The position numbers and the translations under genes are program-made. From positions 1 to 52,628 of the forward strand of contig JAOAPR010000225.1 of the NCBI GenBank assembly GCA_025463005.1: a stretch of 52,628 nt of DNA, in the 5' to 3' direction. Under the pieces are notes generated by a model that had not been told where the DNA came from, made no database searches, and saw nothing but the letters and a program-made list of their open reading frames with translations. Positions 22,748 through 31,607 of this stretch are shown here, one piece after another; the stretch's first letter is position 1; each line of letters begins with the position of its first letter. The DNA is from Bryobacterales bacterium. GTDB taxonomy: Bacteria > Acidobacteriota > Terriglobia > Bryobacterales > Bryobacteraceae.

Positions 22748-23506
22748 CTAGGGAAGCAGGTAACCGGCGTTGGCCAGGATCGCTCGCCCTTCAGCGCTTA
22801 GTAGAAATGAGCTAAACCATTTTGCATCTTTTACGTGTGACGAAGCCGTGACGATTCCCATCGCCTGTTCGATTGGATGGTAGAGATGGGAATCGATCTT
22901 CAAAACGGTGCCCTGATCCTTCAGCACCAGCGAATAGGCAGTGAAGGCAGCGTTCGCACTGCCCGACGCCGCGAATTGCTTAGCCATGCTGATACTGGTT
23001 CCATAGACGAGCTTGGGCTGGACGGCGTCCCAAAGACCTGCGTTCTTTAGCACCTCCACAGTTGCCTGACCATACGGAGCCAATTCGGGCTGGGCGATGG
23101 CGATGAACCGAATTTGCGGTCCGGCGAGGTCCTTCAATTCGCGAACACCGCTCTTCTCGCCGTCGGGGATCCACAAAGCAAGTTGACCGAGTGCGTAGAC
23201 GGCGCGACTGTCACTGGTGATCTTGCGGTTGGACACGAGGGAATCGACATGTTCAGTATCGGCGGCGGCAAAAACGTCGAACGGGGCGCCATTCTCGATC
23301 TGCGTGGCTAGCTGCGCCGTGGATCCGTAACTAAAGATAACTTCCACGCCAGTCTTCGCTTTAAACGCACGTCCAACCTCGCCAAACGCGTCGGTCAGGT
23401 TGGCTGCCGCCGCGACGGTCAGCTTGCTTTCAGAAGCTCGCGGGGTATTGCAGGAAGCGAGAAGTACAGCCGCGCACAAGATCGCTCGAGCGAGTCGGGG
23501 GTACAT
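22748..23506 (-). CDS. modA: Molybdate/tungstate ABC-transporter substrate-binding protein
   Basis: This 252-residue lipoprotein (lipobox LLASC, Cys at 19) is a periplasmic binding protein of the ModA family. Motifs are LTVAAAANLTDAFGEVGRAFKAKTGVEVIFSYGSTAQLATQIENGAPFDVFAAAD, where the AAN, SYGST and PFDVFAAAD segments line the oxyanion pocket. YGTSISMAKQF and the YHPIEQAMGIV segment are near the C-terminus. It would bind molybdate, tungstate or a similar oxyanion for an ABC importer, but no modB or modC lies in the window. A TATAAT element (23521-23526, minus strand) sits 15 bases before the ATG, implying a very short leader. It is divergent from the TonB-dependent receptor. Confidence 0.9.
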   Translation of the reverse strand: MYPRLARAILCAAVLLASCNTPRASESKLTVAAAANLTDAFGEVGRAFKAKTGVEVIFSYGSTAQLATQIENGAPFDVFAAADTEHVDSLVSNRKITSDSRAVYALGQLALWIPDGEKSGVRELKDLAGPQIRFIAIAQPELAPYGQATVEVLKNAGLWDAVQPKLVYGTSISMAKQFAASGSANAAFTAYSLVLKDQGTVLKIDSHLYHPIEQAMGIVTASSHVKDAKWFSSFLLSAEGRAILANAGYLLP

Positions 23507-23520
23507 GGAGCGTTGTGTTA

Positions 23521-23526
23521 ATTATA
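23521..23526 (-). promoter_or_regulatory. -10 element for modA
   Basis: The minus strand reads TATAAT here, 15 bases before the modA start codon, with no clear consensus -35. The adjacent palindrome (23540-23555) covers the region where the -35 would lie. Confidence 0.5.
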
Positions 23527-23536
23527 TGCCGTCTTG

Positions 23537-23565
23537 TTGACACTACAGGTAGTGTGTTGTGTTAA
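23537..23565 (+). promoter_or_regulatory. Promoter and palindromic operator upstream of the TonB-dependent receptor
   Basis: TTGACA (23537-23542) and TGTTAA (23560-23565) are spaced 17 bases, a good promoter pair for the rightward receptor gene. A perfect palindrome, ACACTACAGGTAGTGT (23540-23555), overlaps the -35 and spacer, as expected for a repressor site. GTTGTGTTAA occurs twice as a direct repeat (23512-23521 and 23556-23565), flanking the palindrome. Confidence 0.6.
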
Positions 23566-23596
23566 CATAACTCCGTCGTTCTTGCACAACACTTTT

Positions 23597-26500
23597 ATGG
23601 CGACGCGGATTCAAACAACATCCATCTTAATGTGGGGGTTAATTGTCGCTTCGACGAACTGTTTCGGCCAAGCGGGCCGGGCCGAACTCTTTGGCACGAT
23701 CACGGACCCTTCCGGCCTTGCGATTCCCAAGACCCACGTCGATGCCGAAGACCAGGCGACGATGGTGCGGTATTCGGCTGCCTCGGATGAACGCGGCGAG
23801 TATCATATCCTGGGCTTACCCGCGGGTCAGTACTTGGTGACCGTGGAGCAACCTGGTTTCCGCACCTACCGGCAAGCGGGCATTACTCTGCGGCTGGGCG
23901 ATCGCACAAGGTTAGACGTGAATTTGGACATCGGCCAGCCGTCTCAAGCAGTCGAGGTCACCGCGTCGGCGCCCCTGGTGCAAACTGCCAGCGGCGACGT
24001 GAGTCTGAACGTCGAAGAAAAGAAAATATCCACGCTGCCGCTGGACGGACGCACCTTCATCCCGTTGTTGACACTCGCGCCAGGGGTCGCGTTACCGGGA
24101 GGGGGCTCTATTCTCGCCAGGATCAACGGCAGCCGGCCGCGCACGAACGAGTATATCTACGACGGCGTCAGCGTGCTACAGCCGGAGCCGGGGCAGGTGG
24201 CTTATTACCCGATCGTCGACGGAATGGCCGAATTTAAACTCAATATCAACGCATACTCTCCCGAGTACGGCCGGTCGAACGGCGGCACCGTGATGGTGAT
24301 TGGAAAATCCGGGAGCAATGAGTTCCACGGCAGTCTGTTTGAGTTTTTCCGCAACGAAGCATTGAACGCGAGGAATCTATTCGCCCAACCGGGTCCGAAG
24401 CCCCAGTTCCGACGCAATCAATACGGAGTAACCGTGGGCGGGCCGATTCAAACCAACAAGACATTCTTCTTCGCAGATTGGCAGGGGACGCGGCTGCGGA
24501 CCGGCATTACGCGATTCAGCGTGGTTCCCACGCTGGCGCAACGGCAGGGAATCTTTACCCAACCGATTTTCGATCCAGCCAGCTCGCCGCGCACACAATT
24601 TGTAAACAATACAATTCCGACGAACCGTTTCGACGCCCTGGGAATTCAAGTGCTTCAGCATTACCCGCTACCGAACGTCGCCGGCGCGAATAATTTTGTA
24701 CGAACCGCGACCGAGCCGGACAACCAGGATCAGGCCGACTTTCGGGTGGACCGTTATTTCGGGGAAAAGCATCGGGTGTTCGGACGGTACACTCTCTTCC
24801 GAGACGACGATACGCCGGTCACTCCGTTGCCCGACGGAAGCGGAAGTCTAACTACCGGCGTGATCGGCCACGCGATTACACGCGGCGACGCAGTCGTTGG
24901 TGACTATAACTGGATGCTTTCGCCTTCGGCTCTGAACCAGTTCCGAGTCGGCTATTCCAGGCGCGACCTTGCCCAGACTTCCCTTCAGAATGGCGGAATC
25001 ACGGTGCCGGGCCTGCCGGCAAATTCGTTCGGATCGGTGTTGCCGATCTTCACGGTCACAGGACTCCAGCAAATCGGTCCGACCAGCGCCGCGAACTCGA
25101 ATTTCACGACCTCCATCACGGAGTTCCTGGATACGTTCACGTTGGTGCGCGGCCGGCACGCCTTCAAGTTCGGAGCTGATATTCGGCGCGAAGCTCTGGA
25201 CGTTCTTAATCCACCTAATCCAACGGGATCGTTTGCCTTTACCACCACCGGCACGAACAGCTCCGCGGTTTCAGGAAGCGGAAACGCGCTGGCCTCGATG
25301 CTTTTGGGGCAGGTGAACGCGTTCAGCATCGACATCCAGAAGCAAATGATTCAGCCGCGAGCTCATATCGCCGAGTTTTTCATCGGAGACGACTGGAGAG
25401 TTTCGCCGCGCCTGATGCTCAATATCGGCACCCGCTACACTCTCAATTTCCCCTCCACGGAGAAGAACGATCAAGGGGCGGTGTTTAATCTGAACACCCA
25501 GGTTCTCGATTTTCCCCACACCGCTCGGGAGGTGCATTGGGGCGACTTCGGTCCTCGTCTCGGACTCGCGTATCGGATTGGCGATAGCTGGGTGATACGT
25601 TCCGGCTATGGCATGGTTTTCTTTGAGCAGACCGGCATCACGACGCCCTTTACGATCCCGCAATTTCCGTTCGTTCAGACGGTGGGTCAGCAATCGCAAG
25701 ATAACGTGAACGCTGCGTTCGGACTGTCCAGCGGGCCCACGGCTCAAGTGACGGCGCCGAATCCGAACTCGGGGTTGGGGCAAGGAGTTTTTGGCGTGGA
25801 TCGCCACAACGGTTCGGGCTATTCGCAGCAATGGAACTTCACAGTTCAAAAAACAATCGGAAAGAACTGGAACGTGGAGGTTGCGTATCTGGGCTCGAAG
25901 AATACACGGCTCGGCATACCCGACGCGAATATCAATCAGCTCCCCTCGCAATACCTCGCCCTGGGCTCGGCGCTTTTGACAAGAGTTTCGAATCCGTACT
26001 TCGGACAGATTCCGGCCTCGTCGTCTCTCGGAGGGACGACGATCGCCCAACAACTGCTGCTGCGGCCGTATCCGCGCTTCACCAACGTGGCTCTGTTCCG
26101 CGACAACGTTGGCAACTCGACCTACAACGCGGCCGCTGCAAAACTGGAGAAGCGCTTCTCGAACGGCTTGACGTTGACGGCGTCCTACACATTTTCGAAG
26201 CTCATCGACGATGCCTCGACAGTGTTCTCGCAGACCATCTTCACGGGACCCGTCCTGGGTACGACGGGAGCCGCGGACGCCAACAACCGGCACCTCGAGA
26301 AGGATCTTTCGACCGGCGACATACCTCGGATTTTCGCGCTGGGCTGGGTGTACGATATTCCGCGATTGTGGAAGATCTCGGGCTGGCAGATCGCGGGCCT
26401 GGTTCGCATACAGGCGGGAGACACCGTAGCAATCAGCCAGGCGACCAACAACAACTCTAGCTTAGGTTTTGCGGTTCAACGGCCCAACAGAGTCAGCGAT

Positions 26501-26818
26501 CCGAACGGGTTTGATGGCCGCAGTGTGGCCAGATTCTTCAACACAGCGGCCTTTACGGGCGCGCCGCAGTTTGTGATCGGGACGATCTCGCGCAACCCGA
26601 TTCGCGGACCAGGGCTTCAGAATGCGGATGTGATGATTGGAAAGACGTTTCGACTGACGGAGCGGGTGAGCCTGGAAACGCGCGCGGAAGCTTTCAATGT
26701 GTCCAACACTCCTCCGTTGAATGATCCAAACGCAAGCTTTGGAAACGCGGCTTTCGGTTCGATTACTAGTGCGGGTAATCCGCGCGACTGCGAATTTGTC
26801 GCGAAGGTGCATTTTTAG
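23597..26818 (+). CDS. TonB-dependent receptor with N-terminal carboxypeptidase-regulatory-like domain
   Basis: This 1073-residue outer-membrane protein has an N-terminal signal region (about 8-30). A carboxypeptidase-regulatory-like domain (about 30-115) begins AELFGTITDPSGLAIPKTHVDAEDQATM. A TonB plug domain (about 125-245) includes PLVQTASGDVSLNVEEKKISTLPLDGRTF, and a long beta-barrel ends in a terminal phenylalanine (KVHF), the usual outer-membrane signature. The start ATG at 23597 has no clear ribosome-binding site. It is divergent from modA (90 bases) and followed by a repeat element and an XRE regulator with an oxyanion-binding-like domain. This suggests uptake of an oxyanion or its complex, but the family also takes up carbohydrates. 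Confidence 0.92.
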   Translation: MATRIQTTSILMWGLIVASTNCFGQAGRAELFGTITDPSGLAIPKTHVDAEDQATMVRYSAASDERGEYHILGLPAGQYLVTVEQPGFRTYRQAGITLRLGDRTRLDVNLDIGQPSQAVEVTASAPLVQTASGDVSLNVEEKKISTLPLDGRTFIPLLTLAPGVALPGGGSILARINGSRPRTNEYIYDGVSVLQPEPGQVAYYPIVDGMAEFKLNINAYSPEYGRSNGGTVMVIGKSGSNEFHGSLFEFFRNEALNARNLFAQPGPKPQFRRNQYGVTVGGPIQTNKTFFFADWQGTRLRTGITRFSVVPTLAQRQGIFTQPIFDPASSPRTQFVNNTIPTNRFDALGIQVLQHYPLPNVAGANNFVRTATEPDNQDQADFRVDRYFGEKHRVFGRYTLFRDDDTPVTPLPDGSGSLTTGVIGHAITRGDAVVGDYNWMLSPSALNQFRVGYSRRDLAQTSLQNGGITVPGLPANSFGSVLPIFTVTGLQQIGPTSAANSNFTTSITEFLDTFTLVRGRHAFKFGADIRREALDVLNPPNPTGSFAFTTTGTNSSAVSGSGNALASMLLGQVNAFSIDIQKQMIQPRAHIAEFFIGDDWRVSPRLMLNIGTRYTLNFPSTEKNDQGAVFNLNTQVLDFPHTAREVHWGDFGPRLGLAYRIGDSWVIRSGYGMVFFEQTGITTPFTIPQFPFVQTVGQQSQDNVNAAFGLSSGPTAQVTAPNPNSGLGQGVFGVDRHNGSGYSQQWNFTVQKTIGKNWNVEVAYLGSKNTRLGIPDANINQLPSQYLALGSALLTRVSNPYFGQIPASSSLGGTTIAQQLLLRPYPRFTNVALFRDNVGNSTYNAAAAKLEKRFSNGLTLTASYTFSKLIDDASTVFSQTIFTGPVLGTTGAADANNRHLEKDLSTGDIPRIFALGWVYDIPRLWKISGWQIAGLVRIQAGDTVAISQATNNNSSLGFAVQRPNRVSDPNGFDGRSVARFFNTAAFTGAPQFVIGTISRNPIRGPGLQNADVMIGKTFRLTERVSLETRAEAFNVSNTPPLNDPNASFGNAAFGSITSAGNPRDCEFVAKVHF

Positions 26819-26835
26819 CGAGAGGTGTCGATCCG

Positions 26836-26927
26836 CAAAATGGGGACAGTCAGCCGGTGTCCCGGCAGGAAGACTCCTGCCTTGTATGGCCGTCTCGCAC
26901 GGGACACTGGTGACTGTCCCCATTTTG
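26836..26927. repeat. Long inverted-repeat element, REP/MITE-like
   Basis: Outer arms CAAAATGGGGACAGTCA...GTGTCCCG (26836-26864) and its complement (26900-26927) match except for a few bases. Inside is a second perfect hairpin, GGCAGGA-AGAC-TCCTGCC (26864-26881). The layout matches non-autonomous REP-like repeats. A short related piece, TGGGGACAG, lies at 21832-21840. Being between the receptor and the regulator, it may also act as a terminator. Confidence 0.75.
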
Positions 26928-26961
26928 AAAGTGACTGCCGACGTTACAATGTGAGCTAGTC

Positions 26962-28083
26962 ATGAAGACGCGCGTCCAAAACCGCTTGGCCGATGTTCGA
27001 AAGAGCAGAGGCGTGGGCGCATCCGACTTGGCGCGCCGCGTACGGGTGAGTCGCCAGACGATTTACGCGATCGAAGCCGGGACCTATGTTCCCAATACTG
27101 AAGTCGCGCTGAATCTTGCGCGGGAGCTCGAGGTCACGGTTGACGAGCTTTTTTTACTCCAGGACGGGGTCCCTCAGGTGCCCGAATCGCTTGCCGCAGA
27201 GGTGCTAAGCGCCGGGCCGCAGGTAAGCGGTCAGCCAGTGCGAGTCTGCCAGATAGGGTCGCGCTGGGTCAGCGTACCGGTTAGCGCCTCTCCATACTAC
27301 ATGCCGGAAGCCGACGGCATCATCAAGCGAACTGGACGAACGAACGGCCGTGCGGACCTGGTGGTGTTCGCGAAGGAAGAGGCATCTCAGAAACGACTGG
27401 TATTGGCGGGCTGCGATCCAGCTACCGGTCTTCTGGCGCGCATGGTGGAGAAGATCAGCGGCGTAGAAATCGTCTCCGCTGCCGCCTCAAGCAAGCTCGC
27501 ACTCACCTGGCTTAGCGAAGGGAAAGTACACGTCGCTGGCTCGCATCTGGAAGATCCGAAAACCGGAGAATTCAATCTGCCGTACATTCGCAAACAGTTT
27601 CCGGACGAGGATTTCAGCGTCGTCACGTTTGCGCGATGGGAGGAAGGATTTGTCGTCGCGCCGGGAAATCCGAGGCGCGTGCGCAAGATTGAGGATCTGG
27701 CGCGGAAGAATGTCAGATTCGTGAATCGAGAGCCGGGCTCAGGAAGCCGCGGGCTGTTGGACAAACTTCTGGAGAAGGCCGGGATGGATGCGGAGACGGT
27801 TCAAGGCTATGATCGGATCGCGCAGGGTCACCTTGCGGCTGCGTATTGCGTAGTTTCCCGGGAGGCAGACGTTTGCGTGGCGACGCGGTCTGCCGCTCAG
27901 ACCTTTGGACTGGATTTTGTTCCTCTACATAGCGAGCGCTACGATCTGGTGATGCGCAAGCGCACGGCCGATCTGCCGGCGGTGAAGGCTTTCCTCGATG
28001 TGCTGCAGCGAGCCACACTGCGCCGCAAGCTGGAAGTGCTGGCCGGTTACGATACTTCGCAGACGGGCACGCTGGTTTCGTAG
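26962..28083 (+). CDS. XRE-family transcriptional regulator with periplasmic-binding-protein-like sensor domain
   Basis: The 373-residue protein starts with an XRE helix-turn-helix (about 8-62: LADVRKSRGVGASDLARRVRVSRQTIYAIEAGTYVPN). A linker leads to a PBP-like domain (about 125-350) with RLVLAGCDPATGLLARMVEKISGVEIV, AGSHLEDPKTGEFNLPYI, FVNREPGSGSRGLLDKLL and GYDRIAQGHLAAAYCVVSREADVCVATRSAA. These match the molybdate-binding-like PBP domain found in ModE-type and XRE-type regulators. The ATG at 26962 is the only in-frame start before a stop. A ligand of the modA type is plausible, and its likely target is the palindrome at 23540-23555 (inference). Confidence 0.88.
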   Translation: MKTRVQNRLADVRKSRGVGASDLARRVRVSRQTIYAIEAGTYVPNTEVALNLARELEVTVDELFLLQDGVPQVPESLAAEVLSAGPQVSGQPVRVCQIGSRWVSVPVSASPYYMPEADGIIKRTGRTNGRADLVVFAKEEASQKRLVLAGCDPATGLLARMVEKISGVEIVSAAASSKLALTWLSEGKVHVAGSHLEDPKTGEFNLPYIRKQFPDEDFSVVTFARWEEGFVVAPGNPRRVRKIEDLARKNVRFVNREPGSGSRGLLDKLLEKAGMDAETVQGYDRIAQGHLAAAYCVVSREADVCVATRSAAQTFGLDFVPLHSERYDLVMRKRTADLPAVKAFLDVLQRATLRRKLEVLAGYDTSQTGTLVS

Positions 28084-28088
28084 ACGGT

Positions 28089-29141
28089 TCATTGGGGAGA
28101 ACCGCAAGCAGTGGCTCGGCCACTCTTTGGGTTTTGAACGTTATCCCAAATGGTCGTCTTACGCCCGTCAGCGCAAATCGCAACGGCCTTCTGGCCGTTC
28201 TTGGACTGGATGTGAAGAACCGCGCCCTGGCTATCGCCAACCCCTTCGCTCATTCCGACGTCGATCAGGAAAATCAATCCGCGCCACTGGAACATCTCAC
28301 CCGCGTTGCGCTGTCGAGAGTCATCAAAAAGAACCGCTTGGTGTTGGTGGCCCTGCACCAGGTGGGCCACGCCGAGAGCAGCCGTATAGCGAGCCAGGAG
28401 TTGCTCAGCGCTTCGATGGGGACCGTCTACCTCGAACCACGATTTTCCACCAGGCCCTTCCTCGCCTATGCGAGCTTCGAGCATTGAATCCTGGCCGACG
28501 AGTTGCTTACTGCCAAAGCCATCTTTGCTGACGCCGTTCTGCAAATCAGCAGTGAGCTGCGAAAGGGTACGGCCGCCAGTGTTGCCGGCATGCGAGAAGA
28601 ACCAATCGCACACCCGGGCGCCGAAGGGCAGCAAGCACATGAGTTGTCCCACGTCCCCACGGCAAGCCGCGACATCCGCGGGCGTAAGACCGCCGGCGCG
28701 AAGATCATTGGCGAAATCTTTCACCTTGTTGGCAGTCGGATCGGCCAGGAACTCCGCCTCATGGTTGCCCATCAGAATTACGACCTGGCCACCTTGCCGC
28801 GCCGAGGAGTCGCGCAGAGACCGAACCAATCGAAGCACCTCTACGGAATGGGGTCCTTTGTCGATCAGATCACCTGTGAACAGCAGGACAGCGCGGCCGG
28901 CAATCCAAGTTACTGTGCGGGATTCGGTGGCACGGATTTCAATGATTCCCGCGGCGCTGAGCAGTTTCACCAGGCGATCGTAGTCGCCGTGTACGTCTCC
29001 CACGGCAAAGATGTCTTCGGTCGTATCGATCTGTACGATAGCCGGGTGCTTCGCCCAATCACGGGAGACTTTGCTCTGAGGAAAAGCCGCCCCGGCCCAC
29101 AGCAACAGGGCGCAGCCCACGCGGTGAATTCTCACGGACAC
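28089..29141 (-). CDS. Exported calcineurin-like (Shewanella-like) protein phosphatase
   Basis: This 350-residue protein has an N-terminal signal region (LLLWAGAAFPQ) and complete PPP-family motifs: GDVHGDYDR, GDLIDKGP, GNHE, a later FSHAGN and GHQH. It thus keeps the dinuclear metal site of Ser/Thr phosphatases and metallophosphoesterases, placed in the periplasm. The start is read as GTG at 29141, directly after the stop codon of the upstream receptor gene (TAG then GTG). The two are therefore translationally coupled; a second GTG six bases on is also in frame. It is convergent with the regulator gene (5-base gap). A natural substrate is not known; release of phosphate near a TonB receptor suggests scavenging. 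Confidence 0.9.
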   Translation of the reverse strand: MSVRIHRVGCALLLWAGAAFPQSKVSRDWAKHPAIVQIDTTEDIFAVGDVHGDYDRLVKLLSAAGIIEIRATESRTVTWIAGRAVLLFTGDLIDKGPHSVEVLRLVRSLRDSSARQGGQVVILMGNHEAEFLADPTANKVKDFANDLRAGGLTPADVAACRGDVGQLMCLLPFGARVCDWFFSHAGNTGGRTLSQLTADLQNGVSKDGFGSKQLVGQDSMLEARIGEEGPGGKSWFEVDGPHRSAEQLLARYTAALGVAHLVQGHQHQAVLFDDSRQRNAGEMFQWRGLIFLIDVGMSEGVGDSQGAVLHIQSKNGQKAVAICADGRKTTIWDNVQNPKSGRATACGSPQ

Positions 29142-31607
29142 CTAGCGCTTCGGCGCGTAACCGATCGTCAACGAGACCATCAAGCTACGTCCCGGCAGCA
29201 GCGTTAGAAGATCGCCACCCGCGGGTGTAAAAGGGGCCGCCGAGGTTGCCGCTACGGCCGGCGATATTCCCGTGATGTTGTGGTTGTCGAACAGGTTGTT
29301 GACGCTTAGCCCGATTCGGCTCCCACGGAGGAATGACGCGTTTTTCACGGTGTAATTGACGAACACATTGGAGACGTTGAAGGGATCGATTTTGACCGCC
29401 TGGTTGACACTGCCGTTGTCGTTGTACATCCGGCCGACACGTTTGTTGAAGAAACCCTCGTCCCAGTTCCGGTGCTGCCACGTCACCCCGACGGTTTCGG
29501 TGTCTCGCGGAGCGTTCGCTACCCACAGGCTCGTGTTTTCGTACTTGGCGGCGCCCAGGGTTCCGTTAAGATACAGACTGACGCCACGGGCAAGCACGAT
29601 GTTGCTTTCCGCTTCGACGCCCTTGGTGTTCGAGGGGCCGGTGAGAACGTATATGAGCTCGGTTTGATTGTCCGGATTGTTAATCGCCGAGTAAGGATTC
29701 TCGAAATGGATGTGATACGCGTTCACATCCAGAGTCCAGCGATTGAACTTTAGTACCGTACCAGCCTGGTAGGTCTTGGCCACGGTCTGCTTCGGCGGCG
29801 TTCTCACGGTACCGGCGGGCACATCGAATGCGCTGGTCGGCGGGATTACGCTGCCTTCGCCGAACTGGGCATACACAGACCAGTTTCTCTGCAAGCGGTA
29901 ACGCGCTGCGACTGATGGCAGCCACTTGTTGAAGTCAACGCTGTGCGGGTAGAAGGCGACACCGCCAATGCAGGTCTTGGTCTTGTCAAGAACGCCGCCC
30001 AGGCAACCTACGGCCTTGCCGTTGTCCTGGTATTGCTCGAAGTGCATGTCGTAGCGAGCGTCTTTGATCCCGGCTGTCACAACCAGTTTTGGCGTGGCTC
30101 TCCACTCATACTCGGCATACGGCTGGTAGGTTTGAGTGATGAAGTGTTCGTGGAAGTTCGGTGTGATGGTGTCCGCCCATGTAAAAGGAGAGGACGGATA
30201 CTGATAGCGGTCGGTATAAGCCCAGTCGTACCAAATGCCTGTTCGGAAGACTCCCCATCGAGACTCGTGGCTGAGCGTGACGGTGTCCCCGATATGGTTC
30301 GCGCCATTGAGCTTGTCGACCCCGCTCGTTACAGAGAGCGTTGTCAGGTTCTTCTCCAGGTTTTGCTTATTCCAATACCGGTAAGTACTGGCCTTATTGT
30401 CCAGCCGCCAGCCATGGCCCAGGTCGGCATTGAGGCCGATGTAGCCGAAGTCCGTTTGTACGTGGTAGAAGCTGTAGCCATAGAAGAAAGGGCTGGTTGG
30501 ATCTCCATTCAACAGATAGTTATCGCCAAACTGTGCCACCTGAGCCCGGTTCGGCGCGTTGGTGTCCGGCGTATTGGTCCAAAGATCGATGAGCCCGAAA
30601 AACGCTGTCAGGACTGTTTTGTCCGTGAACTTATACTGATACTTCATCGAGCCGGCGACTCGCTTCTGGTAGTTGTAGGTCTGGTATCCGTCAGACAGCA
30701 ATTGGTGAAGGTCGAGTATCAGACTGGATTTTTTCTCTTTCAAACCGAACTGCCCGGAATCAAGACTCAGATCGAACAAGCGGGTGTTAAAGGATCCATA
30801 CGAGGCAGTGGCTTTGATGTCCGGGCTGGATGGCACGTCGTGAGACAGGAGGTTGATCGATCCACCGAAGTTCGTCGGACCAACGTTTGAAGCGCCTCCC
30901 GGGCTGCGGTCGAAGTCGACGCCGCCAATCCACTGGCCCGGGAAAAAAGCCCACGAGTGGTGCGTGGGAGAGTTCGTATCCTGAAACGGAATGCCGTCGA
31001 AGGTCATGGTATATTGACCATCGCTGAAGCCGCGGAAATATGTCTTTCCCTGACCTAGCCCGACTCCGTTGGAATTGACGCTAAACGTGCCGGGCGCCAT
31101 CTGGATAACCTCGTTAAAATCCGCGAGCGGTGAAGCGAAGTACTTGATGAACTGCTCGGTGACTTCCGTTCTGGCGGACGTGGCATCGAGGGTGTTTCCG
31201 GAAGGCGCGAGCTGCGCCGCGACCGAAGCGGCCGCCTCCACTGTGACCGTCTGGGTTACATTTCCAACGCTCAGGGGGATCGAGATGTCCTCCGTTCCAG
31301 AGGCGGCCACCTGCTGCCCCACGCGGCGGGTGGTGGTAAACCCGGCCGCCGAAGCCTCAATCGTATATACGCCGGCAGACAGGCCGCCGGCTGCGAAACG
31401 ACCTTCTGCATCGGTTGTAGAGGTGTGAAGGGCTCCCGTCGCTTCGTTCTTCACAGCGACGCTGGCGTTCGGGATAGCTTTCCCAGCCTGATCCAGTACG
31501 GTCCCGGCGAGGGATGCTGAACCTGATTGCGCATGGAGCAGATAGGGTCCTGAGGCGCTAACAAATAGTACGAATACAAATATCCACAGCGAACGGAGAG
31601 ATCGCAT
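29142..31607 (-). CDS. TonB-dependent receptor with carboxypeptidase-regulatory-like domain, coupled to the phosphatase gene
   Basis: This 821-residue outer-membrane receptor has a signal peptide (MRSLRSLWIFVFVLFVSASGPYLLHAQ). The carboxypeptidase-regulatory-like domain at about 33-113 begins ASLAGTVLDQAGKAIPNASVAVKN. The plug at about 125-250 includes RGFSDGQYTMTFDGIPF, and a beta-barrel extends to the end (LMVSLTIGYAPKR). It is shorter than the other receptors here and closer to standard siderophore-type receptors. GGAG lies before the ATG at 31607. Its stop codon abuts the start of the exported phosphatase gene. A perfect palindrome GTAACTT-CCGC-AAGTTAC (31645-31662) lies upstream. A phosphate-containing substrate is a reasonable guess. 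Confidence 0.92.
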   Translation of the reverse strand: MRSLRSLWIFVFVLFVSASGPYLLHAQSGSASLAGTVLDQAGKAIPNASVAVKNEATGALHTSTTDAEGRFAAGGLSAGVYTIEASAAGFTTTRRVGQQVAASGTEDISIPLSVGNVTQTVTVEAAASVAAQLAPSGNTLDATSARTEVTEQFIKYFASPLADFNEVIQMAPGTFSVNSNGVGLGQGKTYFRGFSDGQYTMTFDGIPFQDTNSPTHHSWAFFPGQWIGGVDFDRSPGGASNVGPTNFGGSINLLSHDVPSSPDIKATASYGSFNTRLFDLSLDSGQFGLKEKKSSLILDLHQLLSDGYQTYNYQKRVAGSMKYQYKFTDKTVLTAFFGLIDLWTNTPDTNAPNRAQVAQFGDNYLLNGDPTSPFFYGYSFYHVQTDFGYIGLNADLGHGWRLDNKASTYRYWNKQNLEKNLTTLSVTSGVDKLNGANHIGDTVTLSHESRWGVFRTGIWYDWAYTDRYQYPSSPFTWADTITPNFHEHFITQTYQPYAEYEWRATPKLVVTAGIKDARYDMHFEQYQDNGKAVGCLGGVLDKTKTCIGGVAFYPHSVDFNKWLPSVAARYRLQRNWSVYAQFGEGSVIPPTSAFDVPAGTVRTPPKQTVAKTYQAGTVLKFNRWTLDVNAYHIHFENPYSAINNPDNQTELIYVLTGPSNTKGVEAESNIVLARGVSLYLNGTLGAAKYENTSLWVANAPRDTETVGVTWQHRNWDEGFFNKRVGRMYNDNGSVNQAVKIDPFNVSNVFVNYTVKNASFLRGSRIGLSVNNLFDNHNITGISPAVAATSAAPFTPAGGDLLTLLPGRSLMVSLTIGYAPKR

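What the first reader, a model, noticed from the sequence alone, without database searches (positions are those of the whole stretch)
22748..28083. Possible oxyanion acquisition system: modA, TonB-dependent receptor and PBP-domain XRE regulator
A ModA-type binding protein, a large TonB-dependent receptor and an XRE regulator with a molybdate-binding-like sensor domain lie together. modA and the receptor share a 90-base divergent promoter region with a palindrome. Classic molybdate uptake uses porins for outer-membrane passage, so a dedicated TonB receptor under an oxyanion-sensing regulator would be a new route. The substrate could be molybdate, tungstate or a metal chelate.
Basis: partly seen in the sequence, partly recalled or inferred. 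Interest (0 to 1): 0.75.

Follow-up and report, generated by a model that had tools for sequence, protein, structure and literature searches.

The report
Molybdate-regulated TonB receptor module
Some soil Acidobacteria appear to devote one of their many outer-membrane TonB receptors to acquiring molybdenum or tungsten, because that receptor is tied, through a shared DNA switch, to genes that look like molybdate sensors and importers.

Summary
The three genes are real: modA (22748-23506, -), a PF25183 TonB-type receptor (23597-26818, +) and an XRE/PBP_like regulator (26962-28083, +). The neighbourhood is conserved beyond chance: of 99 regulator loci, 70 have an orthologue of this receptor within 1 kb and 7 have a receptor of a second clade. 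Receptor-family neighbours: 57 of 90 regulator ORFs versus 5 of 532 distant ORFs. A conserved operator, TGTCRTGTTAAnATGACA, overlaps a -10-like core before the receptor. It also precedes other partners of the regulator (MOT1, modA, a PF00174 protein) in some loci. Elsewhere in the phylum the sister receptor clade sits beside an unrelated HTH_17+TOBE-type regulator in 12 of 16 loci. Best explanation: a molybdate/tungstate-controlled outer-membrane uptake step feeding ModA and a ModBC encoded elsewhere. Substrate, sensing and transport are inferred. Against: 22 of 99 loci lack both receptor clades, modA is near in only 13, and the own modBC lacks the operator. Nearest precedent: P. aeruginosa T6SS-ModA-IcmP. 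Nine library searches listed no TonB-dependent molybdate transporter.

The parts
22748..23506 (-). modA, molybdate-binding protein of the periplasm (secretion signal with a lipobox-like LLASC, by eye)
   Evidence: TIGR01256 205 bits; the only match over that cut-off in the 6.36 Mb genome, two weaker ones at 33-35 bits; own modB and an ABC gene on contig C82 with no modA in the 18 kb read there
23530..23547 (.). second operator copy, modA-proximal
   Evidence: matrix score 16.7; CCGTCTTGTkGACAsTACA kept in L074 and L075 but not in L165
23555..23572 (.). main operator TGTTGTGTTAACATAACT, overlaps a -10-like core of the receptor promoter
   Evidence: matrix score 24.7; 21.8 with a matrix trained without the window group; only exact match in the own genome
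23574..23591 (.). weak third operator-like copy
   Evidence: matrix score 14.4, no more than the best background window
23597..26818 (+). TonB-type outer-membrane receptor (CarboxypepD_reg + OMP_b-brl_4)
   Evidence: PF13620, PF25183; poor AF2 model (pLDDT 62), yet the 50 PDB matches listed are, by name, all TonB-dependent transporters
26962..28083 (+). XRE HTH + PBP_like (PF12727) regulator
   Evidence: AF2 pLDDT 91, Foldseek to LysR effector domains, phosphate-binding proteins, WtpA 3cfx (rank 23) and ModA 3gzg (rank 48)

Best explanation
This is a molybdenum/tungsten acquisition module. The XRE/PBP_like protein binds molybdate or tungstate in the cytoplasm through its PBP domain (inferred) and binds the near-palindrome TGTCRTGTTAAnATGACA that overlaps the receptor promoter (operator conservation shown; binding inferred). 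When the oxyanion is plentiful it blocks transcription (inferred from the overlap with the -10-like core). When it is scarce, the receptor and, from the divergent side, modA are made. The receptor uses TonB energy to bring molybdate/tungstate, or more likely a chelate of it, across the outer membrane (inferred). ModA captures the oxyanion in the periplasm and hands it to the ModBC encoded on another contig (inferred).
For: (1) Linkage: receptor orthologue within 1 kb of the regulator in 70 of 99 loci, a second receptor clade in 7 more; 57 of 90 regulator ORFs versus 5 of 532 other ORFs have a receptor-family neighbour, although the own genome holds at least 65 such receptors. Of the 70, 64 have the receptor upstream on the same strand and 6 are turned. 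(2) Co-occurrence: 22 of 23 relatives with the receptor (E <= 1e-150) have the regulator versus 14 of 38 without it (my counts; Fisher). (3) Operator: in 46 genomes at <=1 mismatch there are 10 sites, 9 at this module, against one hit for the reversed control; a matrix trained on 38 distant sites puts 26 of 31 held-out upstream regions above the best of 300 background windows (14.4), the window at 21.8, while 40 paralogue 5' regions of the own genome reach at most 13.7. (4) The same operator stands before MOT1 (L145, L146), modA (L124), PF00174-regulator pairs (L084, L098, L149; weaker in five more) and receptors away from the regulator (L162 23.3, L161 18.8, L160 15.4). (5) In 16 receptor loci without this regulator, 12 have an HTH_17+TOBE-type regulator within 700 bp (eight of these proteins scanned, all eight with both domains). 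That regulator lies beside a modA-like gene in L270 and L278 and, weakly, L276. (6) Own modB with an ABC gene exists away from modA.
Against: No binding, expression or transport data. modA is near the regulator in only 13 of 99 loci and the PF00174 gene in 20, so the receptor-regulator pair, not the triad, is the conserved unit. 22 of 99 loci have neither receptor clade; five of these have under 700 bp upstream, but L057-L060, L147 and others do not. Ten of these 22 show no operator match of 14 or more (three of them cut by contig ends), nor do L047 and L061 of the second clade or the truncated L083. Five of 31 held-out upstream regions, among them L081 with the orthologous receptor, fall below the background maximum. 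14 of 38 relatives carry the regulator without the receptor. The own modBC region shows no operator (L164). Free molybdate is small enough for porins, so the need for a TonB receptor is unexplained unless the substrate is a chelate. Four of 16 receptors outside have no TOBE neighbour in the DNA fetched. HTH-TOBE presence is not significantly higher in genomes with the receptor (15 of 16 versus 8 of 13, p 0.06).
Confidence: 0.74

Rival explanations
1. The receptor is under molybdate control but imports something else: a substrate whose use needs a molybdoenzyme, so that it is switched with cofactor supply.
For: TonB receptors usually carry large or scarce substrates (recalled); a molybdoenzyme stands beside the regulator in one locus read for it (L054); a CCP_MauG-type cytochrome lies downstream of the regulator in 9 of 99 loci.
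Against: In the cluster list and the loci read, I saw no catabolic gene family recurring around the receptor; not all 99 loci were read gene by gene. In receptor-free loci the operator stands before MOT1 or modA.
Confidence: 0.14
2. The receptor acts in protein secretion, as its relative Oar is reported to do for protease PopC in Myxococcus (recalled), and its link to molybdate is indirect.
For: Same broad Oar-like architecture, CarboxypepD_reg plus barrel (the likeness to Oar is recalled).
Against: No secreted effector gene was seen to recur beside it in the cluster list or the loci; the recurrent partners are Mo uptake or sensor genes.
Confidence: 0.05
3. The linkage is shared ancestry or chance among closely related MAGs in genomes crowded with such receptors.
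For: Nearly all 80 loci are Bryobacterales or other Acidobacteriota MAGs; receptors number at least 65 in the own genome.
Against: 57 of 90 versus 5 of 532; orientation changes; the receptor found is the orthologue among 35-262 first-look candidates per genome; separate pairing with TOBE-type regulators elsewhere in the phylum; the operator is kept at receptors on other contigs.
Confidence: 0.03

Closest known systems
ModABC with ModE regulation (Proteobacteria; recalled)
   Same: ModA-type binding protein, ModB and an ABC gene present in the genome, oxyanion-sensing repressor proposed
   Different: Regulator is XRE+PBP_like and has no TOBE domain; operator TGTCRTGTTAAnATGACA; an outer-membrane receptor belongs to the regulon; modA is split from modBC
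P. aeruginosa H2-T6SS / ModA / IcmP molybdate route (Wang et al. 2021, not read; seen as cited in passages of PMC8602904 and PMC11734730)
   Same: An outer-membrane protein for molybdate paired with ModA
   Different: [quoted passage not shown] here a TonB-type receptor beside a molybdate-type regulator
TonB siderophore receptors of Azotobacter vinelandii under VnfA1 (one passage of PMC9542535)
   Same: TonB receptors tied to metal-dependent nitrogenase regulation
   Different: Siderophore-type receptors under VnfA1; here an Oar-like PF25183 receptor linked to molybdate-type sensors; nitrogenase was not looked for here
PF25183 (Oar-like) receptors of Acidobacteriota
   Same: Same protein family
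   Different: This clade separates from the paralogues sampled (support 100, quick tree) and is tied to molybdate-type regulators

Membership tests
TonB-dependent transporter | 22-strand barrel with N-terminal plug | tested here: inconclusive
   PF25183 hit but no Plug hit; Foldseek matches to TonB-dependent transporters, yet the model is poor (pLDDT 62; residues 115-239 under 50)
TonB-dependent transporter | energisation by TonB | not testable with these tools
   needs a bench test; a TonB box was not looked for
ModA | TIGR01256 equivalog score over cut-off | tested here: met
   205 vs 62.5 bits
ModA | cognate ModB/ModC in the genome | tested here: met
   modB 239 bits vs cut-off 182.6, ABC_tran gene 10 bp behind it; a modC model was not run
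ModA | binds molybdate/tungstate | not testable with these tools
   no assay
XRE / PBP_like (PF12727) regulators | HTH_3 plus PF12727 | tested here: met
XRE / PBP_like (PF12727) regulators | oxyanion binding by the PBP domain | not testable with these tools
   fold resembles phosphate-binding proteins, WtpA and ModA; pocket not compared
ModE | HTH plus TOBE domains (recalled) | tested here: not met
   the window regulator has no TOBE match; TOBE regulators were found beside the sister receptor clade
Moco riboswitch control | Rfam match near the genes | tested here: not met
   no Rfam family reached its gathering score in the window

The most novel reading that the evidence does not exclude
A clade of TonB-dependent receptors across Acidobacteriota is the outer-membrane importer of molybdenum/tungsten, as oxyanion or as a chelate (molybdophore or cofactor), under two unrelated molybdate sensors recruited independently. 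The small PF00174 protein without a conserved cysteine would be a periplasmic acceptor for a molybdopterin-like or chelated form.
Probability: 0.55. Interest if true: 0.86.

Novelty: new variant of a known kind. Interest (0 to 1): 0.76.

Why it matters
TonB-type receptors number at least 65 in this genome and such expanded sets mostly lack known substrates (recalled). Here one clade gets a concrete, testable assignment, with an operator, two alternative sensors and a periplasmic partner. If true, it adds a dedicated, energised outer-membrane step for Mo/W in Gram-negative bacteria and points to Mo chelates as a nutrient form in soil. The operator and the TOBE pairing also give a way to find further members of the regulon.

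Tried and rejected
A Moco-type riboswitch: no Rfam match. Other own-genome operator sites: at up to 2 mismatches 8 strand hits against 4 for the reversed control; the one with 1 mismatch (C33) lies upstream of a radical-SAM gene, and one with 2 mismatches lies upstream of a receptor paralogue (L220, matrix 13.7); not pursued. Receptor substrate from the fold: the AF2 model is too poor. Regulator ligand pocket by VIA-align: library absent. One search used a receptor query in the wrong frame; its receptor figures are discarded and replaced. In one search alignment rows slipped into the DNA database and filled the output with warnings; the result table at its end was read.

Rows dropped and limits: 17 of 35 loci were removed as duplicates loci before the 99-locus counts; one search kept the best 80 of 250 confirmed stretches. 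The ORF count (57 of 90) leaves out nine loci where the simple gene caller missed the regulator, and counts any PF25183-cluster neighbour. The first matrix was trained on the receptor upstream regions it then scored (68 of 69 entered it); the held-out test is. In one search, 40 of the 64 other receptor places listed were examined; two of the 40 regions overlap and two are short. One search scored 12 first-look candidates per genome and three. The TOBE set (16) is 15 loci plus G058. In the tree every third regulator-linked receptor plus six chosen ones was used, by the quick method without bootstrap, with long-branch warnings.
Full report
Observation. The binding protein at 22748-23506 (-) is an above-cut-off ModA whose best solved relative is a molybdate-binding protein. 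The receptor at 23597-26818 (+) has a carboxypeptidase-regulatory-like domain and the PF25183 barrel. The regulator at 26962-28083 (+) has an XRE HTH and a PF12727 PBP_like domain. The window lies in a 6.36 Mb assembly of 342 contigs. That genome has one PF12727 match, one modA over the cut-off and at least 65 PF25183 receptors (65 of 116 candidates were scored). modB (239 bits) with an ABC gene 10 bp behind it lies on contig C82, with no modA in the 18 kb read there, so the window's ModA is the probable partner of that ModBC. In one relative (G007, L065) modA, a small PF00174 protein, the regulator and an ABC gene (80% identical to the own one beside modB) lie within one 19.5 kb stretch.

Conservation of the neighbourhood. 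A regulator orthologue beyond the HTH alone is present in 36 of 61 relatives searched, one of them cut by a contig end (my count, whose tally is 40 of 61 with any match). With 80 loci from named genome records, 18 non-duplicates from the relatives and the window, 99 loci were compared. A receptor orthologous to the window's lies within 1 kb in 70 of 99 and a second receptor clade in 7. Within the DNA fetched (up to about 9 kb a side) modA is found in 13, the PF00174 protein in 20, a CCP_MauG cytochrome in 9 and MOT1 in 2. Neither receptor clade is found in 22 of 99; five of these have under 700 bp upstream of the regulator (L098, L130, L133, L146, L071), but L057-L060, L147 and others have kilobases. 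At ORF level, 57 of 90 regulator ORFs have a receptor-family neighbour against 5 of 532 ORFs more than three genes away (Fisher p 7e-51; the loci are related, so the p-value is only indicative). Across 61 relatives the receptor orthologue (E <= 1e-150) is in 23; 22 of these have the regulator, against 14 of 38 without the receptor. By my reading of the coordinates it is linked to the regulator in 19 of the 23, on another contig in G003, G012 and G021, and without regulator in G058.

The receptor clade. In a quick tree of 63 receptors the regulator-linked receptors and their relatives from elsewhere in the phylum form one clade (43 rows, support 100) apart from the paralogues sampled. The seven diverged receptors found beside the regulator (L047, L055, L056, L061, L066, L096, L149) form a second clade (support 100). 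The tree carries long-branch warnings among paralogues.

The operator. Upstream regions of 69 receptors next to regulators, of both clades, mostly share an 18-bp near-palindrome, TGTCRTGTTAAnATGACA, that contains a TGnTAAnAT, -10-like core and is often followed by a second partial copy. In the window it is at 23555-23572. A matrix trained on 38 distant sites scores the window 21.8; 26 of 31 held-out upstream regions exceed the best of 300 background windows (14.4), five do not (L055, L061, L081, L066, L047); 40 of the 64 other receptor 5' regions of the own genome reach at most 13.7. In the own genome the window site is the only exact match. In 46 genomes at up to one mismatch there are 10 sites, 9 at this module and one elsewhere (G014:C51), against one hit for the reversed pattern. 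Where no receptor orthologue adjoins the regulator, the operator is found between MOT1 and the regulator (L145 25.2, L146 28.3), between modA and the regulator (L124 23.2), before the PF00174 gene (L084, L098, L149 at 21-23; L078, L138, L139, L143, L151 at 15-18) and just before the regulator (L062 21.8, L063 24.1). It is also kept before receptors on other contigs (L162 23.3, L161 18.8, L160 15.4). Against this: ten of the 22 receptor-free loci have no hit of 14 or more (L130, L133, L147, L057, L058, L059, L060, L065, L070, L071; of these L130, L133 and L071 are cut by contig ends), and the own modBC region has none.

An unrelated sensor with the sister clade. In 247 genomes of the phylum, 17 have the receptor orthologue at E <= 1e-150 and 10 have a regulator match at E <= 1e-40; 15 of the 17 show no such regulator. 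Adding G058 gives 16 loci, and in 12 of them the receptor lies within 700 bp of a small protein of one family; eight of these proteins were scanned and all eight have HTH_17 and TOBE domains. TOBE is the molybdate-binding domain of ModE and molbindins (recalled). This regulator matches in 24 of 30 genomes searched, once each except G163, whose second match is broken by stops; the own-genome match covers only the TOBE part, at 43 bits. It lies beside a modA-like gene and a permease in L270, beside a modA-like gene in L278, and beside a weak modA match in L276. HTH-TOBE presence is not significantly tied to receptor presence (15 of 16 versus 8 of 13, p 0.06); adjacency is what is striking. None of the 15 receptors outside the regulator group has a high-scoring operator (best 2.9; G058 4.2), as expected if the XRE/PBP_like regulator reads the operator.

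Mechanism. Shown: the linkage, the conserved operator, the alternative sensor. Inferred: the PBP domain senses molybdate or tungstate (the fold resembles LysR effector domains, phosphate-binding proteins, WtpA and ModA; the profile search found solved relatives for the HTH part, one match reaching residue 120, none for the PBP part); the regulator binds the operator; binding represses, because the operator overlaps the -10-like core; the receptor imports Mo/W, free or chelated; ModA and ModBC complete uptake. The receptor model is poor (pLDDT 62), but the 50 PDB matches listed are by name all TonB-dependent transporters. The PF00174 protein has no cysteine among its conserved columns in 16 sequences, so a sulfite-oxidase-type activity is unlikely; a binding role is a guess.

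Literature. Nine full-text searches gave, in the titles and abstract starts listed, nothing that describes a TonB-dependent molybdate transporter or an XRE/PBP_like molybdate regulator. Several lists were cut (for example 20 of 162, 20 of 3,330) and the library holds open-licence papers only, so this is weak evidence of absence. The nearest precedent is the P. aeruginosa T6SS-ModA-IcmP route (passages of PMC8602904, and PMC11734730). Azotobacter has VnfA1-dependent TonB siderophore receptors (one passage of PMC9542535).

Verdict. A real, conserved and specific molybdate-type regulatory module around one receptor clade; the transport function is a strong inference, not a demonstration.

Noticed in passing
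window 26836-26926: Strong hairpin of about 90 nt (z -6.2) with TGGGGACAGTC at both ends, between receptor and regulator: looks like an inserted REP or MITE-type repeat; in L074 and L075 the gap between the two genes is 42 bp against 147 here.
   Followed up: partly
L062 1970-2827 (also L033); L263 2035-2913; L264 about 2035-2907: A protein of about 285-292 aa with no Pfam match, by eye a secreted outer-membrane barrel: divergent from the XRE/PBP_like regulator with the operator between (L062), and beside the TOBE regulator in L263 and L264. Possible alternative outer-membrane component.
   Followed up: partly
L047, L055, L056, L061, L066, L096, L149: A second, distinct receptor clade (27-29% identity to the window's) also sits next to the regulator, with operator scores from 9.7 to 24.5.
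   Followed up: partly
L160 11410-12699 and L161 11666-12925: Receptors on other contigs than the regulator are divergent from a similar transporter gene in two genomes; the L161 one is MFS_1.
   Followed up: no
L078, L083, L084, L090, L098, L138, L139, L143, L149: A CCP_MauG-type di-haem cytochrome gene lies just downstream of the regulator in 9 of 99 loci; reason unknown.
   Followed up: no
window 29142-31607: Second TonB receptor (TonB_dep_Rec, Plug; siderophore-receptor model below its cut-off) beside a calcineurin-like phosphoesterase gene at 28089-29141.
   Followed up: no
L122: Record titled Bordetella parapertussis whose receptor groups with Bryobacterales in the tree: probably a mislabelled MAG.
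   Followed up: partly
L167 (G000:C33:3243): One-mismatch operator match upstream of a radical-SAM gene in the own genome; may be chance.
   Followed up: partly
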